Positions 8,857 through 15,744 of a DNA stretch of 64,000 nt are shown piece by piece. Each line of letters starts with the position of its first letter. The stretch's first letter is position 1. The stretch spans positions 3,094,001 to 3,158,000 of the forward strand of contig LR882958.1 in assembly GCA_904830895.1 (NCBI GenBank). Reading direction: 5' to 3'. Both the position numbers and the translations under genes were made by a program. Origin of the DNA: Planktothrix rubescens CCAP 1459/22. Its GTDB lineage: Bacteria > Cyanobacteriota > Cyanobacteriia > Cyanobacteriales > Microcoleaceae. The notes under the pieces are model-generated. The model had not been told where the DNA came from and did not search any database. It worked only from the letters and a program-made list of their open reading frames with translations.

Positions 8857-11202
8857 TTAAATCCATTTTCGCTGTTTCAAGCGTTTCCAATGGGATGATT
8901 TTAAGTTAATTAATAATTGTCGCATTTGTTTGAGGTTAACCGACTTTCCGCCATAGCGCCAACCCACATAGGCCTGAGAGATTTCATCAATCACTTCAAA
9001 TTCTGAAATTGAATGATATTGATCTAACCAAGAGGCATATTCTAAAGGGGTTTGGGTGGGAGATTTGGGATATCCTTTACTAGCTAAAACCTGCAAAAGT
9101 TGTTGATAGAGACTTTCTTCTGGGGGTAATTTAGCTAACCAGCGACGATAGCGCCAACCTCGCCATAAATCCCAACTTAACCAGCCGAAAAATGCCATAA
9201 TTGTTGTGACGATTAAGCCGCTAAAAATCCCCAACCATCCTTGAGTAAACAGATTAAAAAACCAGCTAATTACTTGGAATATTCCTAAAATTAAACGGCC
9301 TAAAATCGCTTGTAATCCATTCGCCAATGGAGAAGGTAGCCAACCAGCCACCCAATTCCAAAAGGCTTTTAAGGCACTAAAGGTTTGATCTTCTTCCACC
9401 GAAGGCGGAATTAAATCCATCCCAGGAATAGGGTTAAAACCAAACCAACCATATTCGGGGAAATATACCTCCGTCATCGCAAAAGCATCGGTATTTTTAA
9501 CCACATATAATCCCGTAAACGGATTAAATTCTCCTGGGTTAAACCCCGCTACCAGACGCGCCGGAATTCCAATTGAACGTAACATCATGGTTAAAACCGT
9601 GGAAAAATGATCGGGGTAGCCCCCGGTAATTTTTTCTCCGGGGGGACTATCTTGATAACCAAAAAGAAACGCTTCTACTAGATCTTCATTTTCCCTTAAA
9701 AACGGCGGTTCTTCCTGTAATTTATAGTTAGGGTTTTGTTTGAGATACTGGGCTAAATATAAGGCTTTTTCATAATTGGAATCTAAGGGTTTTTTGTTTT
9801 GGGCGACTTGATGCACACTGGCTAGAATTTCTTCCGTCTTTTTCCTGACTTGCTCTTTAATTTGATCTGGAACTTGTAAATAGTATTTTTTGATATTTGG
9901 AGGATAGTTTTTAGAAGCGGCTTGTAATTGTACCCTGTCGCGCAGGGGAACTTGAGAAACCACTGTATAGGTCATGCCCTCTCGTAATTCTAAAGGCGAT
10001 CGCAAATTGCCATCGGGATCAATCGCAATTTCCTCCGTCGGGAAATAGAGTTCATTCGGTTTATTCATCGCCGGAATTAAACTAGGAAGCTGTTGAAGTA
10101 CGGTATAACTTTGAATCACTTCTTGAGTCTTGGCATTAGTGATTGGCGGAAATAGATTGAATTGATATGACCAACGGGGACGTCTTAAAGTGATCGCTCT
10201 ATTATTTCGAGAAATTTCCCATCCCTCTCCAGTATAACGATCAAAAGCTACAACCCGCCAAAATCCCCGGGCTTGCGATCGCACCCTTAATACTTCTTGT
10301 GGCTTTAAATTGCCGCGTAAATTCTGATTAATTTTGGTATTGAATCCATAATAGAAGGTATCATTAAGAGTTCCTGCCCCCGTTTCCTGATTTAATCCGG
10401 TGCCACCTGCACCCGAATTATTATTATTATTATTTCCCGAAGACACATAACCCGGATTGAGAATGCGTTGTCCATTAAATTGTCCGGGGGGCATATCAAT
10501 TGGAGAACTGACCGGAAAAGTTCTTAACTGATAGCTAGGAAACCGAGGAAGAACGGTAAAAATAGTTAATCCCAAAGCAACAACTACTAAAAAAATAATT
10601 CCTAAAGATTTAAAATTTATTCCACTTCCGGGTTGCTGGGGTGTTTTTTTAGAGTTAAATTGAATCTCCCCCAGCCCTAAACGAGAGCGATAATCTAAAA
10701 TTAATGTTGGTAAAGCTAAAGCCAAAAATACTAACACCACAGGCCCAAAAGCCAAGGTTTGACTGAGAGTTCCCGCTACTCCCATTAAAATTAATCCAAT
10801 CACCATCGAATAGCCTAAATCCTTACGCCGGGGTAAATCAAAACTGTGTAAAACCTGTAATTCTATTAATAATCTCGCTAAGGCTAACCGCGTATCATTC
10901 ATTTCGCCAAACAGTCGCCCAAAAAATGCAGCCAGGGCAATTAACATCCCAATAGCAATACAAAATTTAACAGGCACATTGCGATGGTAACGACGAAACC
11001 AACTCCAAGTTGCTCCGACAATGCTAACCGGAATTGCCCATAAATTCAGGGGTTCTTCAATAGCGACGTCCGTGGCAATAATCCCGGCAATCACTAATAA
11101 CTGCACCAATATCCGCAGCCAAAGGGAATCTTCAGGAATTGGCTTTGGTATGGCTTCAATCCGTCGCCATAATTGACTAATCAAAGGGATTGAATTTGTC
11201 AT
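8857..11202 (-). CDS. TgpA-like membrane protein (DUF3488, degenerate transglutaminase-like, DUF4129)
   Basis: A 781-residue membrane protein with the TgpA architecture. About six transmembrane helices occupy residues 25-220, followed by an extracytoplasmic region, a transglutaminase-like core around residues 520-600, one or two more helices near 640-690, and a C-terminal DUF4129-type tail. In active family members the core has Cys, His and Asp. Here the corresponding segments read GGYPDHFST, NTDAFAMTEVYF and GFNPIPG, so all three catalytic positions appear changed (Cys to Pro, His to Phe, Asp to Asn). This suggests a pseudo-enzyme used for binding or a structural role. A low-complexity Asn/Gly run (SSGNNNNNNSGAGG) lies after the second membrane block. 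Confidence 0.82.
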   Translation of the reverse strand: MTNSIPLISQLWRRIEAIPKPIPEDSLWLRILVQLLVIAGIIATDVAIEEPLNLWAIPVSIVGATWSWFRRYHRNVPVKFCIAIGMLIALAAFFGRLFGEMNDTRLALARLLIELQVLHSFDLPRRKDLGYSMVIGLILMGVAGTLSQTLAFGPVVLVFLALALPTLILDYRSRLGLGEIQFNSKKTPQQPGSGINFKSLGIIFLVVVALGLTIFTVLPRFPSYQLRTFPVSSPIDMPPGQFNGQRILNPGYVSSGNNNNNNSGAGGTGLNQETGAGTLNDTFYYGFNTKINQNLRGNLKPQEVLRVRSQARGFWRVVAFDRYTGEGWEISRNNRAITLRRPRWSYQFNLFPPITNAKTQEVIQSYTVLQQLPSLIPAMNKPNELYFPTEEIAIDPDGNLRSPLELREGMTYTVVSQVPLRDRVQLQAASKNYPPNIKKYYLQVPDQIKEQVRKKTEEILASVHQVAQNKKPLDSNYEKALYLAQYLKQNPNYKLQEEPPFLRENEDLVEAFLFGYQDSPPGEKITGGYPDHFSTVLTMMLRSIGIPARLVAGFNPGEFNPFTGLYVVKNTDAFAMTEVYFPEYGWFGFNPIPGMDLIPPSVEEDQTFSALKAFWNWVAGWLPSPLANGLQAILGRLILGIFQVISWFFNLFTQGWLGIFSGLIVTTIMAFFGWLSWDLWRGWRYRRWLAKLPPEESLYQQLLQVLASKGYPKSPTQTPLEYASWLDQYHSISEFEVIDEISQAYVGWRYGGKSVNLKQMRQLLINLKSSHWKRLKQRKWI

Positions 11203-11292: not shown

Positions 11293-11333
11293 TTCGTAAT
11301 TCGTAATTCGTAATTCCCTATTCCCTATTCCCT
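11293..11333. repeat. Two adjoining heptamer arrays
   Basis: About three ATTCGTA-type units are followed by three TTCCCTA units. The second array overlaps the 3' end of the patU3-like gene and supplies its last codons (reading IGNRE and then the stop). Confidence 0.85.
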
Positions 11334-12355
11334 ATGATTGCAAAACAGAGGGGATTTTGCTCCTCACTATCTAATAAAACATGAAGTCGATAAATCTGGT
11401 TCGGTTCAGGGTTAGTCAATTCCAGGGTTAAACATCCGGGGGAATTGCGTTTTGCGGTTACTGATCTGTCATTTCCTAATAGTTGTAAGCGTCCGCCATC
11501 GGGAAATTCACCCCGGATTTTCAAACTTGTACCAGACTCAGTTTCAACATAGTCAACATCAACGGTAAATAGCCCTAAAGTTGTTAACCATTCCTGATGA
11601 ACCGTCGATTGATTCAAACGACAATTGAGGGTTAAAGTATTCAGAAGTTCTTGAGCAGCTAATAATAATAACACCATTTGTTGTTCAGGAGTCGCTGTTT
11701 CATAACAGGGTTGGGACTCCCTTAAATCTAAAGATCCCCGTAAAGAACCTCGAATCACTAAACCTGCTAATTCATTCAAGGGTTGGGACTCGTTAGGAAA
11801 TAAAGTTTCCACGGCCTGAACTAATTTTGCTCCTTCTCGTAGGCCAGATTGTAGTAGAGTAAACACTGGAGCCAGTAACTGAGCAAAAACCTGATCGGGT
11901 AGGGGCATCGACCATCTCAATTGTTGTCGATGAGCCATCCATAAATGAGTAGCGGGAACCTGTTCTTCTCTAAATACGTCAGGGTACTCATTCAGCAAGT
12001 CAGTGCCGATCGGTTCCCACGGAAACAGGGGTGGGTTCATCTCAATTCTGGCTTTAAGTTTTTCTCTTAAAACGGTCTCAAATCGGTTTTTCACAATTTC
12101 TATCTCTCCTATAGCTGAATATTGATTTTCCGGGCGGAAAAGCTGCTCCTCAAAATCGAGGGGATCTAATTCATCCCACTCTAGGTTTTCCACCTCACAA
12201 CTCTGATCAAGCTGTGTATGGGGGTTTAATTCCTCCTCAGCCGAATCAGAGGTAGGGACGGGAGTATCCCGCCCATACAAGTCTTTTTGTAACAACCCGT
12301 CAAAGAATCGGCGTTCAAACGCTTGCTCGTCTTGGTTTGTTTCGTTATTCATCAC
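11318..12355 (-). CDS. patU3: PatU3-like protein
   Basis: A 345-residue acidic protein encoded directly after the hetZ homologue and overlapping it by 11 bases, the gene order known for hetZ-patU3 in heterocyst-forming cyanobacteria. In Anabaena, PatU3 works against HetZ in heterocyst patterning. The N-terminal FERRFFDGLLQKDLYGRD and the C-terminal beta-rich half are the parts I associate with PatU-type proteins, so the name rests on context plus partial recognition. No membrane segment or enzyme motif is visible. The last few codons fall in a heptamer repeat, which suggests the native C-terminus was changed slightly. The gene may have lost its promoter because an IS splits the upstream hetZ. 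Confidence 0.62.
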   Translation of the reverse strand: MMNNETNQDEQAFERRFFDGLLQKDLYGRDTPVPTSDSAEEELNPHTQLDQSCEVENLEWDELDPLDFEEQLFRPENQYSAIGEIEIVKNRFETVLREKLKARIEMNPPLFPWEPIGTDLLNEYPDVFREEQVPATHLWMAHRQQLRWSMPLPDQVFAQLLAPVFTLLQSGLREGAKLVQAVETLFPNESQPLNELAGLVIRGSLRGSLDLRESQPCYETATPEQQMVLLLLAAQELLNTLTLNCRLNQSTVHQEWLTTLGLFTVDVDYVETESGTSLKIRGEFPDGGRLQLLGNDRSVTAKRNSPGCLTLELTNPEPNQIYRLHVLLDSEEQNPLCFAIIGNRE

Positions 12356-13073
12356 TAGATGCCCCTGCTCCGGATACCGAATGATTCCTGATTTCCCAAG
12401 CCAATTCTAACAACTTAAACCAACGTTTTTGAATTTGAGTGGTTTTACAATTTAAAACCTTAGCAATTTCTACCTCGGATAATCCCTCCTGTTTTAAACT
12501 TAATAAACGCTGTTCATTCGCCCCGATTTGATTTAGGAATTCTTGCCATTGATGGGGTAATAACCCTAAATCCCGTTCTAAATCTGCTTCTAACCATTGG
12601 TGAACTAATTCCCAACGGTGTCCTAAAGCAAATCGCAGTAGATGGTACTTAAATCGTTGCTGCAAATAATCACGCTGACGAGGTGTTAATCCGAGAATTT
12701 CCTCTATTTCACGGGTCGGTAAATCCTGTAACCGCAAGGCAAAATAGTCGGCACAATCGGGTTGTTTGTTTTCTTCTAAATAAGCAATTAGTTCCTCTAC
12801 GACGGTTTGACGCAAAGAGTCGGACTCTGATTCGTTGGACTCGATGACCATAGCAGCCCGAACTTGTCCGAGGAAGGAATCATGATTGTTAGTATCTGAT
12901 TCACTCCCTCCGCCCTGGGCGGCTAATTCTAAATCGACAAAACTTTCTTTAGGCTGTTGTTGAGAGAAGGTTTGCGCTCTTAAAATAATCAATTGTTGAC
13001 TCCGACCTCTAGCTAAAGGAATTCGCCGTTTACCGTAGCGTTCCGTAAATGCCATATATTCCGCTAGTTCTAA
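12345..13073 (-). pseudogene. hetZ: hetZ, 3' part (split by IS701-family element)
   Basis: C-terminal part of a HetZ homologue, a DNA-binding regulator of early heterocyst differentiation in Anabaena. The frame resumes right after the IS with LELAEYMAFTERYGKRRIPL, a stretch I recognise as typical of HetZ, followed by SQQLIILRAQTFS. It ends with a helix-turn-helix-like region (GLSEVEIAKVLNCKTTQIQKR). An ATG at 13055 could start a protein of 236 residues lacking the N-terminus. Joined to the 5' part at 14434-14869 it would give about 386 residues, against about 401 for Anabaena HetZ. The stop overlaps the start of patU3. Confidence 0.78.
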
Positions 13074-14433
13074 TGGGACTTAAACAAAAATCAAGCCCAA
13101 ATCAAGCCTAAACTTGCTTTGTAGGCTGCAAATACATCCCTATTATTCTGGAGCCACTCCACAAATCGAAAGGAAATCGCTGTGCGGAAGGCTTCAAGGG
13201 CATCAGCAAATGTGTTTAAAGGTTTGTTAGCCCATCGACGTCTTAACCCTCCAGTTAAACTATGCCAGAGAATAAAAGTATAGGCACAAAATACCAAAAT
13301 CCAATGTCTGATTAGACTTCTTTTATCTCGGACTTGATATTCTTTCAGCCCCAACCAACCCTTAGCTTCCCTGTAAAAAACTTCTATCCAATTTCTTTGT
13401 GAATAGGTCGTTACTATCCATTCTCCTGTGGCTTTTGATGCCTCAACATTAGTCATTAAATAATCAATATCACTGGCTTGGTCGAAAGTGGCAGCATTCA
13501 TGACGATGGCTATTACTTTCTTCCCTGCATACTTTGATAATTCAATTTCTTTTGTTGCTACCCACACAGTTCTGGGTTTTTCTAGTTGGAGTTGAATTTC
13601 ACTAAAAGCTCCTTGGGGCAACGATTTGGCTAAATTATCTAATCGAGTTTCCTCTGTTTTATCTTCCCCCTTTTTGAGGATTACCTTTCGATTCTTGGCG
13701 ACTCCCCCTATATATTTTAATCTTTTTTTCTCTAACTCTTGTAAAAAATTTGTGTTATTTCCATACCCGGCATCTGTTAGCACAATTCCCGGTTGATATC
13801 CTCTCTCTAAGCTCCTTTCTATTAATTCTAATGCTATTTCCGGTTTCTTTTTAAATTCCGGGTCAGCTTTTCCTGACGGTAATGACTCGGCTTTTTGATA
13901 TAATTCTATATCTAATGGTAGGCTTTTTTTGCCATCGTATAGATGGCTCGTTACTGCTACGATTCCATTGTCGGTTTTTCCGATTTCTCCGATGTATTGT
14001 CGTCCCACTCCATCAGTAAAGTTCCCGCTTTTTCGATGTCCTGAATCATCAATAATTAGGGCAAATCCCCGACTAATCTGGGTTTGCTTACACTGATTCA
14101 TCACCTCCAGGCGACGCTGATTCAGTTTCATTGCTAACCAGGGAGCTTCGGTTAAAAAGTGGTGTAATCGGTGGTAAGCTACTCCTACGGAGTTATTCGC
14201 CATTTGCGACAGGTTTTTTCGCTCACTTTCTCCCAATAATCCCCCTAAATAGTTCCTAAATTCCCGTTTTTGGGCAAGATGACCAAATATATCGTCAAAT
14301 CTTTGACACCATCGGTCAAAGCAGGGGGGCATCGCTGCCGGGGTTGTCTCTTTCATTCGTTATTCTTGAATGTTATGTGCTTGCTACATAATCATTATCA
14401 TCTATTTCTTCCCTTATTTTTGTTTAAGTCCCA
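13074..14433 (-). mobile_element. Complete IS701-family insertion sequence
   Basis: A 1360-bp element with perfect 18-bp terminal inverted repeats: TGGGACTTAAACAAAAAT at 13074-13091 and its complement at 14416-14433. It is flanked by the 4-bp direct repeat CTAA (13070-13073 and 14434-14437; TTAG on the hetZ strand), which agrees with the YTAG-type duplication known for IS701. It contains one full-length transposase gene and looks intact and recent. It sits inside hetZ in the same orientation. Confidence 0.93.
13091..14356 (-). CDS. IS701-family DDE transposase
   Basis: A 421-residue transposase filling the element at 13074-14433. Acidic catalytic candidates are visible: ALIIDDSGHRKSG near residue 100, IVLTDAGYG near 195 and WIEVFYREAKGWLGLKEYQV near 330. 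The C-terminal HWILVFCAYTFILWHSL block is also seen in this family. The full length and the perfect inverted repeats suggest it is functional. The start ATG at 14356 follows an A/T-rich stretch just inside the terminal repeat. Confidence 0.93.
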   Translation of the reverse strand: MKETTPAAMPPCFDRWCQRFDDIFGHLAQKREFRNYLGGLLGESERKNLSQMANNSVGVAYHRLHHFLTEAPWLAMKLNQRRLEVMNQCKQTQISRGFALIIDDSGHRKSGNFTDGVGRQYIGEIGKTDNGIVAVTSHLYDGKKSLPLDIELYQKAESLPSGKADPEFKKKPEIALELIERSLERGYQPGIVLTDAGYGNNTNFLQELEKKRLKYIGGVAKNRKVILKKGEDKTEETRLDNLAKSLPQGAFSEIQLQLEKPRTVWVATKEIELSKYAGKKVIAIVMNAATFDQASDIDYLMTNVEASKATGEWIVTTYSQRNWIEVFYREAKGWLGLKEYQVRDKRSLIRHWILVFCAYTFILWHSLTGGLRRRWANKPLNTFADALEAFRTAISFRFVEWLQNNRDVFAAYKASLGLIWA

Positions 14434-14869
14434 CTAACAAGGTTCGAGGACGGTAAGTTGCCGCTAACTTTGCTTCTTTGCGAAAGGCATTGAGGGTTTC
14501 TAAATAAAAGGCTTGTAAAAAATCCCTGATTAATTCCAATCGAGCTTGATAACTGGACTGGACTTGAGGAGGAGTAATATATCGATATACAATCGCGCTC
14601 AAGGTACTATGTAATTCTAAAGACCCTTGTTTCGACCCTAGCTGATAATATTGAATACATTGCTGTAAACGATGTTGTGCTAGTGTCATGGCCCAGGTTT
14701 CTACATCCCCGGAATCTTGAATCCGTTTGCTTTCTGTACAAATGCGGGTAGCTTCTTCGTTAATTCGTTCGGCTACATCCCGACAGTTTTGTTCAGATGC
14801 ACGGGTGGATAGACTCAGTTCTCTCAATAGCTTTTGGAAAATGGTTTCGGTTTGGCAGATTTCCCCCAT
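14434..14869 (-). pseudogene. hetZ: hetZ, 5' part (split by IS701-family element)
   Basis: N-terminal 145 residues of the HetZ homologue, from ATG 14869 to the insertion point. The native frame reads ...TYRPRTLL, then runs six foreign codons into the IS end and stops (VGLKQK). Removing the IS and one copy of TTAG restores PRTLLELAEYMAFTE without any other change. That is the direct evidence that the two pieces were one gene. The upstream region contains a cyanobacterial heptamer array and a palindromic element but no obvious promoter. Confidence 0.8.
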
Positions 14870-14941: not shown

Positions 14942-15004
14942 CAGTTATCAGTCATCAGTTAACAGTTAGCAGTCAGCAGTCAGCAGTTAGCAGTTAACAG
15001 TTGT
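14942..15004. repeat. Heptamer array CAGTNAN, about nine units
   Basis: Nine consecutive 7-base units of the form CAGTTAN or CAGTCAN, imperfect but in register. The array leads directly into the palindromic element at 15003. Confidence 0.88.
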
Positions 15005-15064
15005 AGGGGCGGGTTCTTTTAGATCTTTCTTAATCACGGCGCATCTTGATGAACCCGCCCGTAC
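15003..15064. repeat. Palindromic element with GTAGGGGCGGGTTC ends
   Basis: The 14-base end GTAGGGGCGGGTTC (15003-15016) is inversely repeated at 15051-15064 with one mismatch. The same 14-base end recurs at 61061 and 61158, so this is one dispersed family. The interior has no coding capacity. It may be a MITE or a REP-like element. Confidence 0.75.
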
Positions 15065-15118
15065 CAGTCATTAGTTAACAGTCTATTAATATTCTTGATC
15101 TTTATTTTTTTAAACATA

Positions 15119-15607
15119 ATGAATTTAGACCTACAAATTCAGTCTTTAATTGATCATGCGCCTCAAGATGGAACAACTCCTCAAATTGTGGAAGCGATCG
15201 CTCCGGCCTTAAAATTATTAGCAGAACAATTAGAACATCCCGAATATTATATTTTGCAAACTTTAGACCAAAGTTGGGTGATTCAACCGTTTATCAATGT
15301 AGATCAACCGCAGATAAAAAAGAGAGTAATTTATGCTTTTTCTACCGTAGAAGATGCTTTAAGTTATACTAATCCTGATGCAGATTCTCAAGTTTTGGCG
15401 ATTCCTTTACCCGTGACTCATATTTTATTTCAAATGGTTGTTTTAGAAATGCCGGATAGTTTATGCTTTTTTGAAACGCCTAATAATTTTCAGTCTGCTA
15501 CGGAAATTAAACGCAGTGAAATCCAAGAGTTAATTCAGGTTTATTTACAGGACTATCAACAACGGCGTCAGTCAAAATCCCGTAAAATTCCGCCGAATAT
15601 TGCTTAA
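15119..15607 (+). CDS. Conserved cyanobacterial hypothetical protein
   Basis: A 162-residue soluble acidic protein (MNLDLQIQSLIDHAPQDG...). No membrane segment, signal or enzyme motif is seen. It reads like a small alpha/beta protein with an N-terminal helical part (EAIAPALKLLAEQLEHPEYYILQ). I do not recognise a named family. The ATG at 15119 is preferred over the in-frame start at 15095, which lies in an A/T-rich leader. A GGTAATA repeat array follows the stop. Confidence 0.6.
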   Translation: MNLDLQIQSLIDHAPQDGTTPQIVEAIAPALKLLAEQLEHPEYYILQTLDQSWVIQPFINVDQPQIKKRVIYAFSTVEDALSYTNPDADSQVLAIPLPVTHILFQMVVLEMPDSLCFFETPNNFQSATEIKRSEIQELIQVYLQDYQQRRQSKSRKIPPNIA

Positions 15608-15625: not shown

Positions 15626-15653
15626 GGTAATAGGTAATAGGTAATAGGTAATA
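15626..15653. repeat. Heptamer array GGTAATA x4
   Basis: Four perfect GGTAATA units lie between the hypothetical gene ending at 15607 and the 3' end of the convergent PP2C gene. Confidence 0.9.
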
Positions 15654-15744
15654 GGGTATTTCAATCCCTAATAGATAAACTGTTTATACCCAAAATTTCC
15701 CCTTCTATTTCAAACAGCTATAGGTTGTCGGAAATTGAACCCCA

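What the first reader, a model, noticed from the sequence alone, without database searches (positions are those of the whole stretch)
12345..14869. hetZ is split by an intact IS701-family element in an apparently non-heterocystous genome
The 1360-bp element has perfect 18-bp inverted repeats and a 4-bp duplication (TTAG on the gene strand). Deleting it plus one TTAG restores an unbroken 386-codon HetZ-like frame. HetZ is required for early heterocyst development in Anabaena. A homologue kept intact until a recent insertion suggests that hetZ had a role outside heterocyst formation in this lineage, now being lost, or that the element moves in and out.
Basis: partly seen in the sequence, partly recalled or inferred. 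Interest (0 to 1): 0.75.

Follow-up and report, generated by a model that had tools for sequence, protein, structure and literature searches.

The report
Jumping gene recently broke hetZ
In one strain of a bloom-forming filamentous cyanobacterium, an ordinary mobile element that had recently multiplied landed inside hetZ, a regulator gene kept intact in the close relatives examined, giving a natural mutant for asking what this "heterocyst" gene does where heterocysts are apparently not made.

Summary
A 1360-bp IS701-family element (13074-14433) with perfect 18-bp ends and a 4-bp target duplication splits a 386-codon minus-strand gene. Removing it and one duplicate gives true HetZ (634.9 bits, cut-off 550), not a paralogue. 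A same-species genome has the exact empty site. HetZ is full length in 9 of 9 other genus genomes and 12 of 12 other family genomes sampled. The host has 12 base-identical copies, 12 of 12 with intact duplications; the same-species genome has only fragments, so the burst is recent. Replicon sizes fit Planktothrix rubescens PCC 7821, and the element fits its published IS "group 16". hetZ in non-heterocystous filamentous cyanobacteria is already known; dN/dS of 0.105-0.163 fits a retained role. I found no sign of reversible movement or lineage-wide loss; sister strains were not readable. Most likely a strain-level knockout or truncation, with hetR, patU and the HetZ-related paralogue intact. Ordinary in kind, useful as a natural mutant.

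The parts
14434..14869 (-). hetZ 5' part: HetZ residues 1 to about 145 (reads as a 151-residue ORF, 14414-14869, whose last 6 codons lie in the IS)
   Evidence: ORF list; NF037963 HetZ 235.4 bits over model 1-136
12345..13073 (-). hetZ 3' part: HetZ residues about 144-386 (ATG-started ORF 12345-13055, 236 aa, with a sigma-70 region-4-like stretch)
   Evidence: ORF list; NF037963 374.8 bits over model 142-366; Pfam Sigma70_r4_2 25.3 bits, just under its 25.7 cut-off
13074..14433 (-). IS701-family insertion sequence, 1360 bp, one of 12 identical copies
13091..14356 (-). DDE transposase, 421 aa, same strand as hetZ
   Evidence: NF033540 IS701 332.8 bits, cut-off 150; DDE_5 138 bits, cut-off 27
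13074..13091 (.). inverted repeat, one end of the IS (18 bp, perfect)
14416..14433 (.). inverted repeat, other end of the IS (18 bp, perfect)
13070..13073 (.). target duplication CTAA (TTAG on the gene strand)
14434..14437 (.). target duplication CTAA (TTAG on the gene strand)
11318..12355 (-). patU homologue, 345 aa, open; its start overlaps the hetZ stop by 11 bases
   Evidence: homologue downstream of hetZ in 79 of 80 titled loci and present in 57 of 59 family genomes, own included; the name patU rests on this position and the literature (PMC7377430, passages); no Pfam or NCBIfam match
8857..11202 (-). large gene downstream of patU (TgpA/transglutaminase-like is a recalled name; no NCBIfam match)
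   Evidence: ORF list; no NCBIfam match; its homologue is fused to a truncated HetZ in another genome

Best explanation
A cut-and-paste IS701-family element that had recently multiplied in this strain inserted at a TTAG target at codon 144-145 of a functional, selectively maintained hetZ and so inactivated or truncated it, as far as can be seen in this strain alone. Shown: the insertion, its target duplication, the empty site in a same-species genome, the identity of the gene, the 12 identical copies, and full-length hetZ in the genus and family genomes examined. Inferred: the strain (Planktothrix rubescens PCC 7821, from replicon sizes), loss of full-length HetZ function, and tolerance of that loss because the strain makes no heterocysts and/or because the HetZ-related paralogue, hetR and patU remain. 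Also inferred: the leftover 236-residue C-terminal piece, whose ATG lies 35 bases after the transposase stop on the same strand, might be made by read-through together with PatU.
For: Exact element, ends and duplication. HetZ equivalog score 634.9 against a 550 cut-off; HetZ-related 499.9 (cut-off 612) and HetZ_rel_2 85.7 (cut-off 400) not met. HetZ group separated from the paralogue by a 100/100 branch. Empty site in the same species. 9 of 9 other genus genomes full length and 12 of 12 other family genomes in the order sample (3 of these 12 are genus members). dN/dS 0.105-0.163 against seven congeners. None of the four residues that differ from the same-species genome is private to the broken copy. 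12 of 12 full copies base-identical and only fragments in the same-species genome. 12 of 12 with 4-bp duplications and a TA core. HetZ-related paralogue open (648.6 bits, cut-off 612), patU open, hetR domain in an open frame of 325. Strain and IS group fit the published tables.
Against: No expression or phenotype data, so partial function from the two pieces is not excluded. Sister strains of the same published lineage (No82, No108, No758) could not be read, so the insertion might be older than one strain. The strain is named by size match, not by accession. Cyanobacteria are often polyploid (recalled), and an assembly shows one allele. dN/dS against the same-species genome is higher (0.276), though from only 4 synonymous and 4 non-synonymous changes.
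Confidence: 0.86

Rival explanations
1. Rewiring rather than loss: the transposase gene, on the same strand, drives a stand-alone HetZ C-terminal fragment (helix-turn-helix-like part and PatU-binding part) and PatU, uncoupled from the hetZ promoter.
For: The 236-aa ORF starts with ATG 35 bases after the transposase stop, on the same strand. [quoted passage not shown] deletions of 2-144 and 145-288 were in the same figure, but their outcome is not spelled out in the passages I saw (PMC7377430). Additional transcription start points for patU inside hetZ are mentioned there. One weak promoter-like match lies on the minus strand inside the IS (13854-13825, 9 of 12).
Against: Promoter-like matches in the region are no more than chance (4 found, 5.2 expected, sd 2.3). 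The start methionine (151) is leucine in one of eight aligned genus sequences, so it is not a conserved internal start. In Anabaena an in-frame deletion of 66 residues near the N-terminus blocked discernible heterocyst differentiation.
Confidence: 0.08
2. Reversible insertion: the element moves in and out of hetZ as a switch.
For: The element looks intact and recently active.
Against: Restoring the frame needs excision that also removes one 4-bp duplicate; 12 of 12 copies keep both, the site in 9 of 9 genus relatives has no footprint, and the copies lie in unrelated places, so nothing is hetZ-specific.
Confidence: 0.02
3. Programmed excision element of the heterocyst kind (like the nifD or fdxN elements, names recalled).
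For: It interrupts a gene of the heterocyst circuit.
Against: Its only ORF of 60 or more codons lying wholly inside is a DDE transposase, not a site-specific recombinase; it has a 4-bp target duplication and 12 copies. The genome has no nifH above the cut-off.
Confidence: 0.01
4. Lineage-wide decay: hetZ is dispensable in lineage-2 Planktothrix and the IS is fixed there.
For: The element group is reported from lineage 2 with one exception, at 1-12 full copies in 4 strains (section read).
Against: The broken copy has no other lesion and no private residue change. Full-length hetZ in 9 of 9 other genus genomes and 12 of 12 other family genomes sampled; but none of these is known to be a lineage-2 strain.
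Confidence: 0.08

Closest known systems
HetZ (NCBIfam NF037963; alr0099 of Anabaena PCC 7120 in PMC2821919)
   Same: Full-length sequence 66% identical to HetZ of two Nostoc records, patU next door, score over the equivalog cut-off
   Different: Interrupted at residue 144-145; the host presumably makes no heterocysts and has no nifH over the cut-off
IS701 family, 'group 16' of the Planktothrix IS survey (PMC9366434, sections 14 and 15 read)
   Same: IS701 family, 1266-bp transposase ORF; 12 copies here against a published 1-12 in lineage 2
   Different: The survey is not among the papers holding both Planktothrix and hetZ and 'heterocyst' occurs 0 times in it, so the hetZ hit is not described in its main text
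ISPlag1 and ISPlr1 insertions inactivating mcy genes in Planktothrix (as cited in PMC9366434)
   Same: Strain-level gene inactivation by an IS in the same genus
   Different: Other elements and another kind of target (secondary-metabolite genes there, a regulator here)
HetZ-related protein (NF037964)
   Same: Paralogue of similar length, 49% identical, open in this genome
   Different: Separate group in the tree; 491.4 bits on the HetZ model, under its 550 cut-off

Membership tests
HetZ (NF037963 equivalog) | Score over the curated equivalog cut-off of 550 bits | tested here: met
   634.9 bits for the joined protein; 635.2 for the intact same-species copy
HetZ (NF037963 equivalog) | Groups with HetZ of heterocyst formers rather than with HetZ-related | tested here: met
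   Tree of 17 rows (13 HetZ, 4 HetZ-related), groups separated by a 100/100 branch; HetZ_rel_2 not in the tree
HetZ (NF037963 equivalog) | patU directly downstream | tested here: met
   345-aa ORF overlapping the hetZ stop by 11 bases; homologue in 79 of 80 titled loci, the one miss (L106) ending 139 bases past hetZ
HetZ (NF037963 equivalog) | Required for heterocyst differentiation | not testable with these tools
   Needs genetics; the host is presumed not to form heterocysts
IS701 family | Transposase over the NCBIfam IS701 cut-off | tested here: met
   NF033540 332.8 bits, cut-off 150
IS701 family | Terminal inverted repeats and a 4-bp target duplication (family trait recalled) | tested here: met
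   18-bp perfect ends; 12 of 12 copies with 4-bp duplications, TA core in 12 of 12, TTAG in 6 of 12 in element orientation
IS701 family | Transposition activity | not testable with these tools
   Inferred only from 12 identical copies
Programmed heterocyst excision element | Encodes a site-specific recombinase and is present once (traits recalled) | tested here: not met
   DDE transposase; 12 copies

The most novel reading that the evidence does not exclude
The insertion is not a plain null: it frees the HetZ C-terminal module (helix-turn-helix-like and PatU-binding part) and PatU from hetZ control. The strain would then be a natural experiment showing that full-length HetZ is dispensable for growth and filament formation in a non-heterocystous cyanobacterium, while a HetZ-C/PatU branch is kept.
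Probability: 0.1. Interest if true: 0.55.

Novelty: new member of a known kind. Interest (0 to 1): 0.3.

Why it matters
hetZ, hetR and patU3 were proposed as part of a core set for filamentous growth because filamentous species without heterocysts keep them (PMC2821919, passages). In the passages I read I saw no test of what hetZ does in such species. A public culture-collection strain with a natural hetZ insertion, an intact same-species comparison genome and an intact HetZ-related paralogue would allow a test without first building a mutant. A 2025 paper speaks of filaments of PCC 7821 (PMC13383048, passages); if that culture carries the insertion, this argues against a strict need for full-length HetZ in filament formation, in line with the remark that mutations in these genes do not give a unicellular phenotype (PMC2821919, passages).

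Tried and rejected
Heterocyst-type excision element: rejected on gene content and copy number. Reversible switch: no footprint and nothing site-specific. Paralogue instead of HetZ: rejected by family scores and tree. Hotspot for hetZ: the 12 sites share little beyond the short target. Of the 12 insertions, 8 lie in a frame of 60 or more codons once the flanks are joined. Five of these have firm family support: hetZ, an alpha/beta hydrolase, a PD-(D/E)XK_3 protein, a sodium/proton exchanger, and a PEP-utilising enzyme hit 11 codons from its end. One has weak support under the cut-off (collagen-like, plasmid). Two (L041, L047) I judged chance frames by eye and did not search.

Two of my early comparisons were flawed and are not used: one search compared 5 of 8 copies in the wrong orientation (986 mismatches reported), superseded; one search aligned opposite strands, superseded. 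Structure prediction of HetZ was asked for four times and the machine was busy each time, so no fold comparison was made; a profile search of solved structures gave 0 matches at E up to 1. A search for HetZ with sigma factor and DNA-binding listed 4 papers (listing only), none opened for that question. L014 was left out of the dN/dS table (one codon shorter, genome 73% complete); L115 was left out of the structure alignment because its matched stretch runs past a stop near the C-terminus; L092 has the same kind of end.
Full report
WHAT IS THERE. On the minus strand, HetZ codons run from 14869 down to 14434, are interrupted by a 1360-bp element (13074-14433), and continue from 13073 down to 12345. 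The element ends in perfect 18-bp inverted repeats and is flanked by CTAA on both sides (TTAG on the gene strand). Joining the flanks with one duplicate removed gives a single 386-codon frame. The element carries a 421-residue DDE transposase on the same strand as hetZ, scoring 332.8 bits on the IS701 model (cut-off 150).

WHICH GENE. The joined protein scores 634.9 bits on the HetZ equivalog (cut-off 550), 499.9 on HetZ-related (cut-off 612) and 85.7 on HetZ_rel_2 (cut-off 400). It is 66% identical to HetZ of two Nostoc records and 49% to the HetZ-related paralogue of the same genome, and a 17-row tree separates the two groups with 100/100 support. The next gene, 11318-12355, is a patU homologue: it was found downstream of hetZ in 79 of 80 titled loci (the miss ends 139 bases past hetZ) and in 57 of 59 genomes of the family, own included (the two misses are drafts, and in draft G005 it is broken by stops near a contig end). 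The 80 loci are the best-matching of 541, so they favour intact genes; 80 of 80 are open over the match apart from two that end a few residues early.

WAS IT INTACT BEFORE. A same-species genome (G001) has the unoccupied site: 4135 of 4158 aligned columns are identical, the junction is identical, and a single CTAA is present. BLAST of the wider region shows the two flanks meeting in G001 with a 4-base overlap, which is the duplication. HetZ is full length in 9 of 9 other genomes of the genus and in 12 of 12 other family genomes in a 195-genome sample of the order (3 of the 12 are genus members). In 9 of 9 genus relatives the site shows no extra bases. In the order sample 99 of 195 genomes are over the HetZ cut-off and 149 of 195 have some match. 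Outside the family, not every hetZ is whole: two shortened copies (G067, G131) are described under things noticed. Against seven congeners dN/dS is 0.105-0.163; against G001 it is 0.276, from only 4 synonymous and 4 non-synonymous changes. At all four of those residues the interrupted copy has a state seen in other relatives. So the gene was under purifying selection and has not visibly decayed since the insertion.

HOW RECENT. The genome holds 12 full copies of the element, all 100% identical over 1360 bp, while G001 has only fragments (up to 85 bases) and one congener (G002) has full copies at 94-95%. 12 of 12 have matching 4-bp duplications; the core TA is in 12 of 12, and TTAG in element orientation is in 6 of 12. 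Rough arithmetic of my own: no difference in about 11 x 1360 bases gives an upper bound near 2e-4 changes per site, against about 0.008 per lineage from dS 0.016 in hetZ, so the burst probably falls within the last few per cent of the time since the two genomes split, unless gene conversion has kept the copies alike or the element evolves more slowly.

WHICH STRAIN. The genome has 5 contigs, 5,698,378 bases in all, with a 5,464,396-base first contig and a 78,572-base second contig. Among the 13 strains in Table 1 of Entfellner et al. 2022 (PMC9366434; sections 14 and 15 seen, section 14 part 1 only) the one that fits is Planktothrix rubescens PCC 7821 (5.69 Mb; 5.46 Mb chromosome; plasmids 13.0, 48.5, 78.6 and 94.0 kb; lake Gjersjoen 1971). 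The element fits their IS group 16 (IS701, transposase 1266 bp, 1-12 copies in lineage 2). A plasmid search with a C2 stretch gave Planktothrix in 5 of 6 matching records, none covering 80% of the query. The naming is an inference. The genome has hetR (Peptidase_S48 259.6 bits) and no nifH above the cut-off (best 221.6 against 394.35; below the cut-off this model also matches 14 of 14 control genomes). In the genus, 4 of 10 genomes have nifH over the cut-off.

WHAT IT MEANS. hetZ in a non-heterocystous filamentous genome is expected, not odd: hetR, hetZ and patU3 were listed among core genes of filamentous cyanobacteria in 2010, with a suggested role in filament formation (PMC2821919, passages). 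A 2024 paper reports genes similar to hetR and hetZ-patU in non-heterocystous Leptolyngbya BL0902 (PMC11298460, passages). In Anabaena, inactivation of hetZ abolishes differentiation, PatU3 interacts with HetZ, and PatU3 also limits cell division (PMC12288457, passages; PMC7377430, passages). The insertion therefore most likely gives a strain-level loss of full-length HetZ, tolerated in culture. A truncated C-terminal product cannot be excluded: its ORF begins 35 bases after the transposase stop on the same strand, contains the region-4-like stretch (25.3 bits, under the 25.7 cut-off), and corresponds to the end of HetZ whose loss abolished PatU3 interaction in a two-hybrid test. Promoter-like matches there are at the chance level, one of them on the right strand inside the IS.

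WHAT ELSE COULD MASK A PHENOTYPE. The HetZ-related paralogue is open (648.6 bits, cut-off 612), and a third, distant one has an open frame of 374 residues. One of the other 11 IS copies lies 359 bp upstream of the HetZ-related ORF on the same strand, which may or may not affect it.

IN PRINT. Full-text searches for Planktothrix with hetZ (5 papers) and for hetZ with insertion sequence and transposase (15 papers) showed no title or abstract start about this insertion. I saw listings only for these, though two papers listed in other searches (PMC5259702, PMC9366434) were looked into for other terms. The held library omits most subscription journals, so this is weak evidence of novelty.

LIMITS. 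No expression or phenotype data; sister strains not readable; strain identity inferred; no structure model.

Noticed in passing
L146 1989-4799 (unnamed one-contig genome G067): HetZ up to about residue 350 of the window protein (C-terminal end lost) is fused in frame to residue 196 onwards of the homologue of the window gene 8857-11202, and no patU match was found in that genome, against 5 of 5 others searched alongside. The HetZ part is 82.5-85.0% identical to its six best titled loci, which include Nostoc, Komarekiella and Scytonema, so this looks like a second, independent lesion of hetZ-patU, in the heterocyst clade; an assembly error is not excluded.
   Followed up: partly
G067:C1:4513206-4537064; G161:C1:227863-233993; G119:C1:3487174-3492914: nifH model halves lie about 23 kb apart in G067 and about 5 kb apart in G161 and G119; these look like candidate excision elements of the heterocyst kind. 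G119 also has a whole nifH elsewhere.
   Followed up: no
L147 1280-2404 (draft genome G131): HetZ matches the model only to position 335 of 366 and then continues in other residues, as after a frameshift; a patU match lies downstream. It may be a sequencing error in a draft.
   Followed up: no
L039 3304-4663: Another copy of the same IS lies 359 bp upstream of the HetZ-related paralogue's ORF, on the same strand.
   Followed up: partly
window 15627-15654: Four tandem copies of the 7-base unit GTAATAG downstream of the ORF 15095-15607; the same-species genome has five copies.
   Followed up: yes
window 14942-15083: Short repeats of the CAGTTAACAGTT kind lie upstream of hetZ.
   Followed up: no
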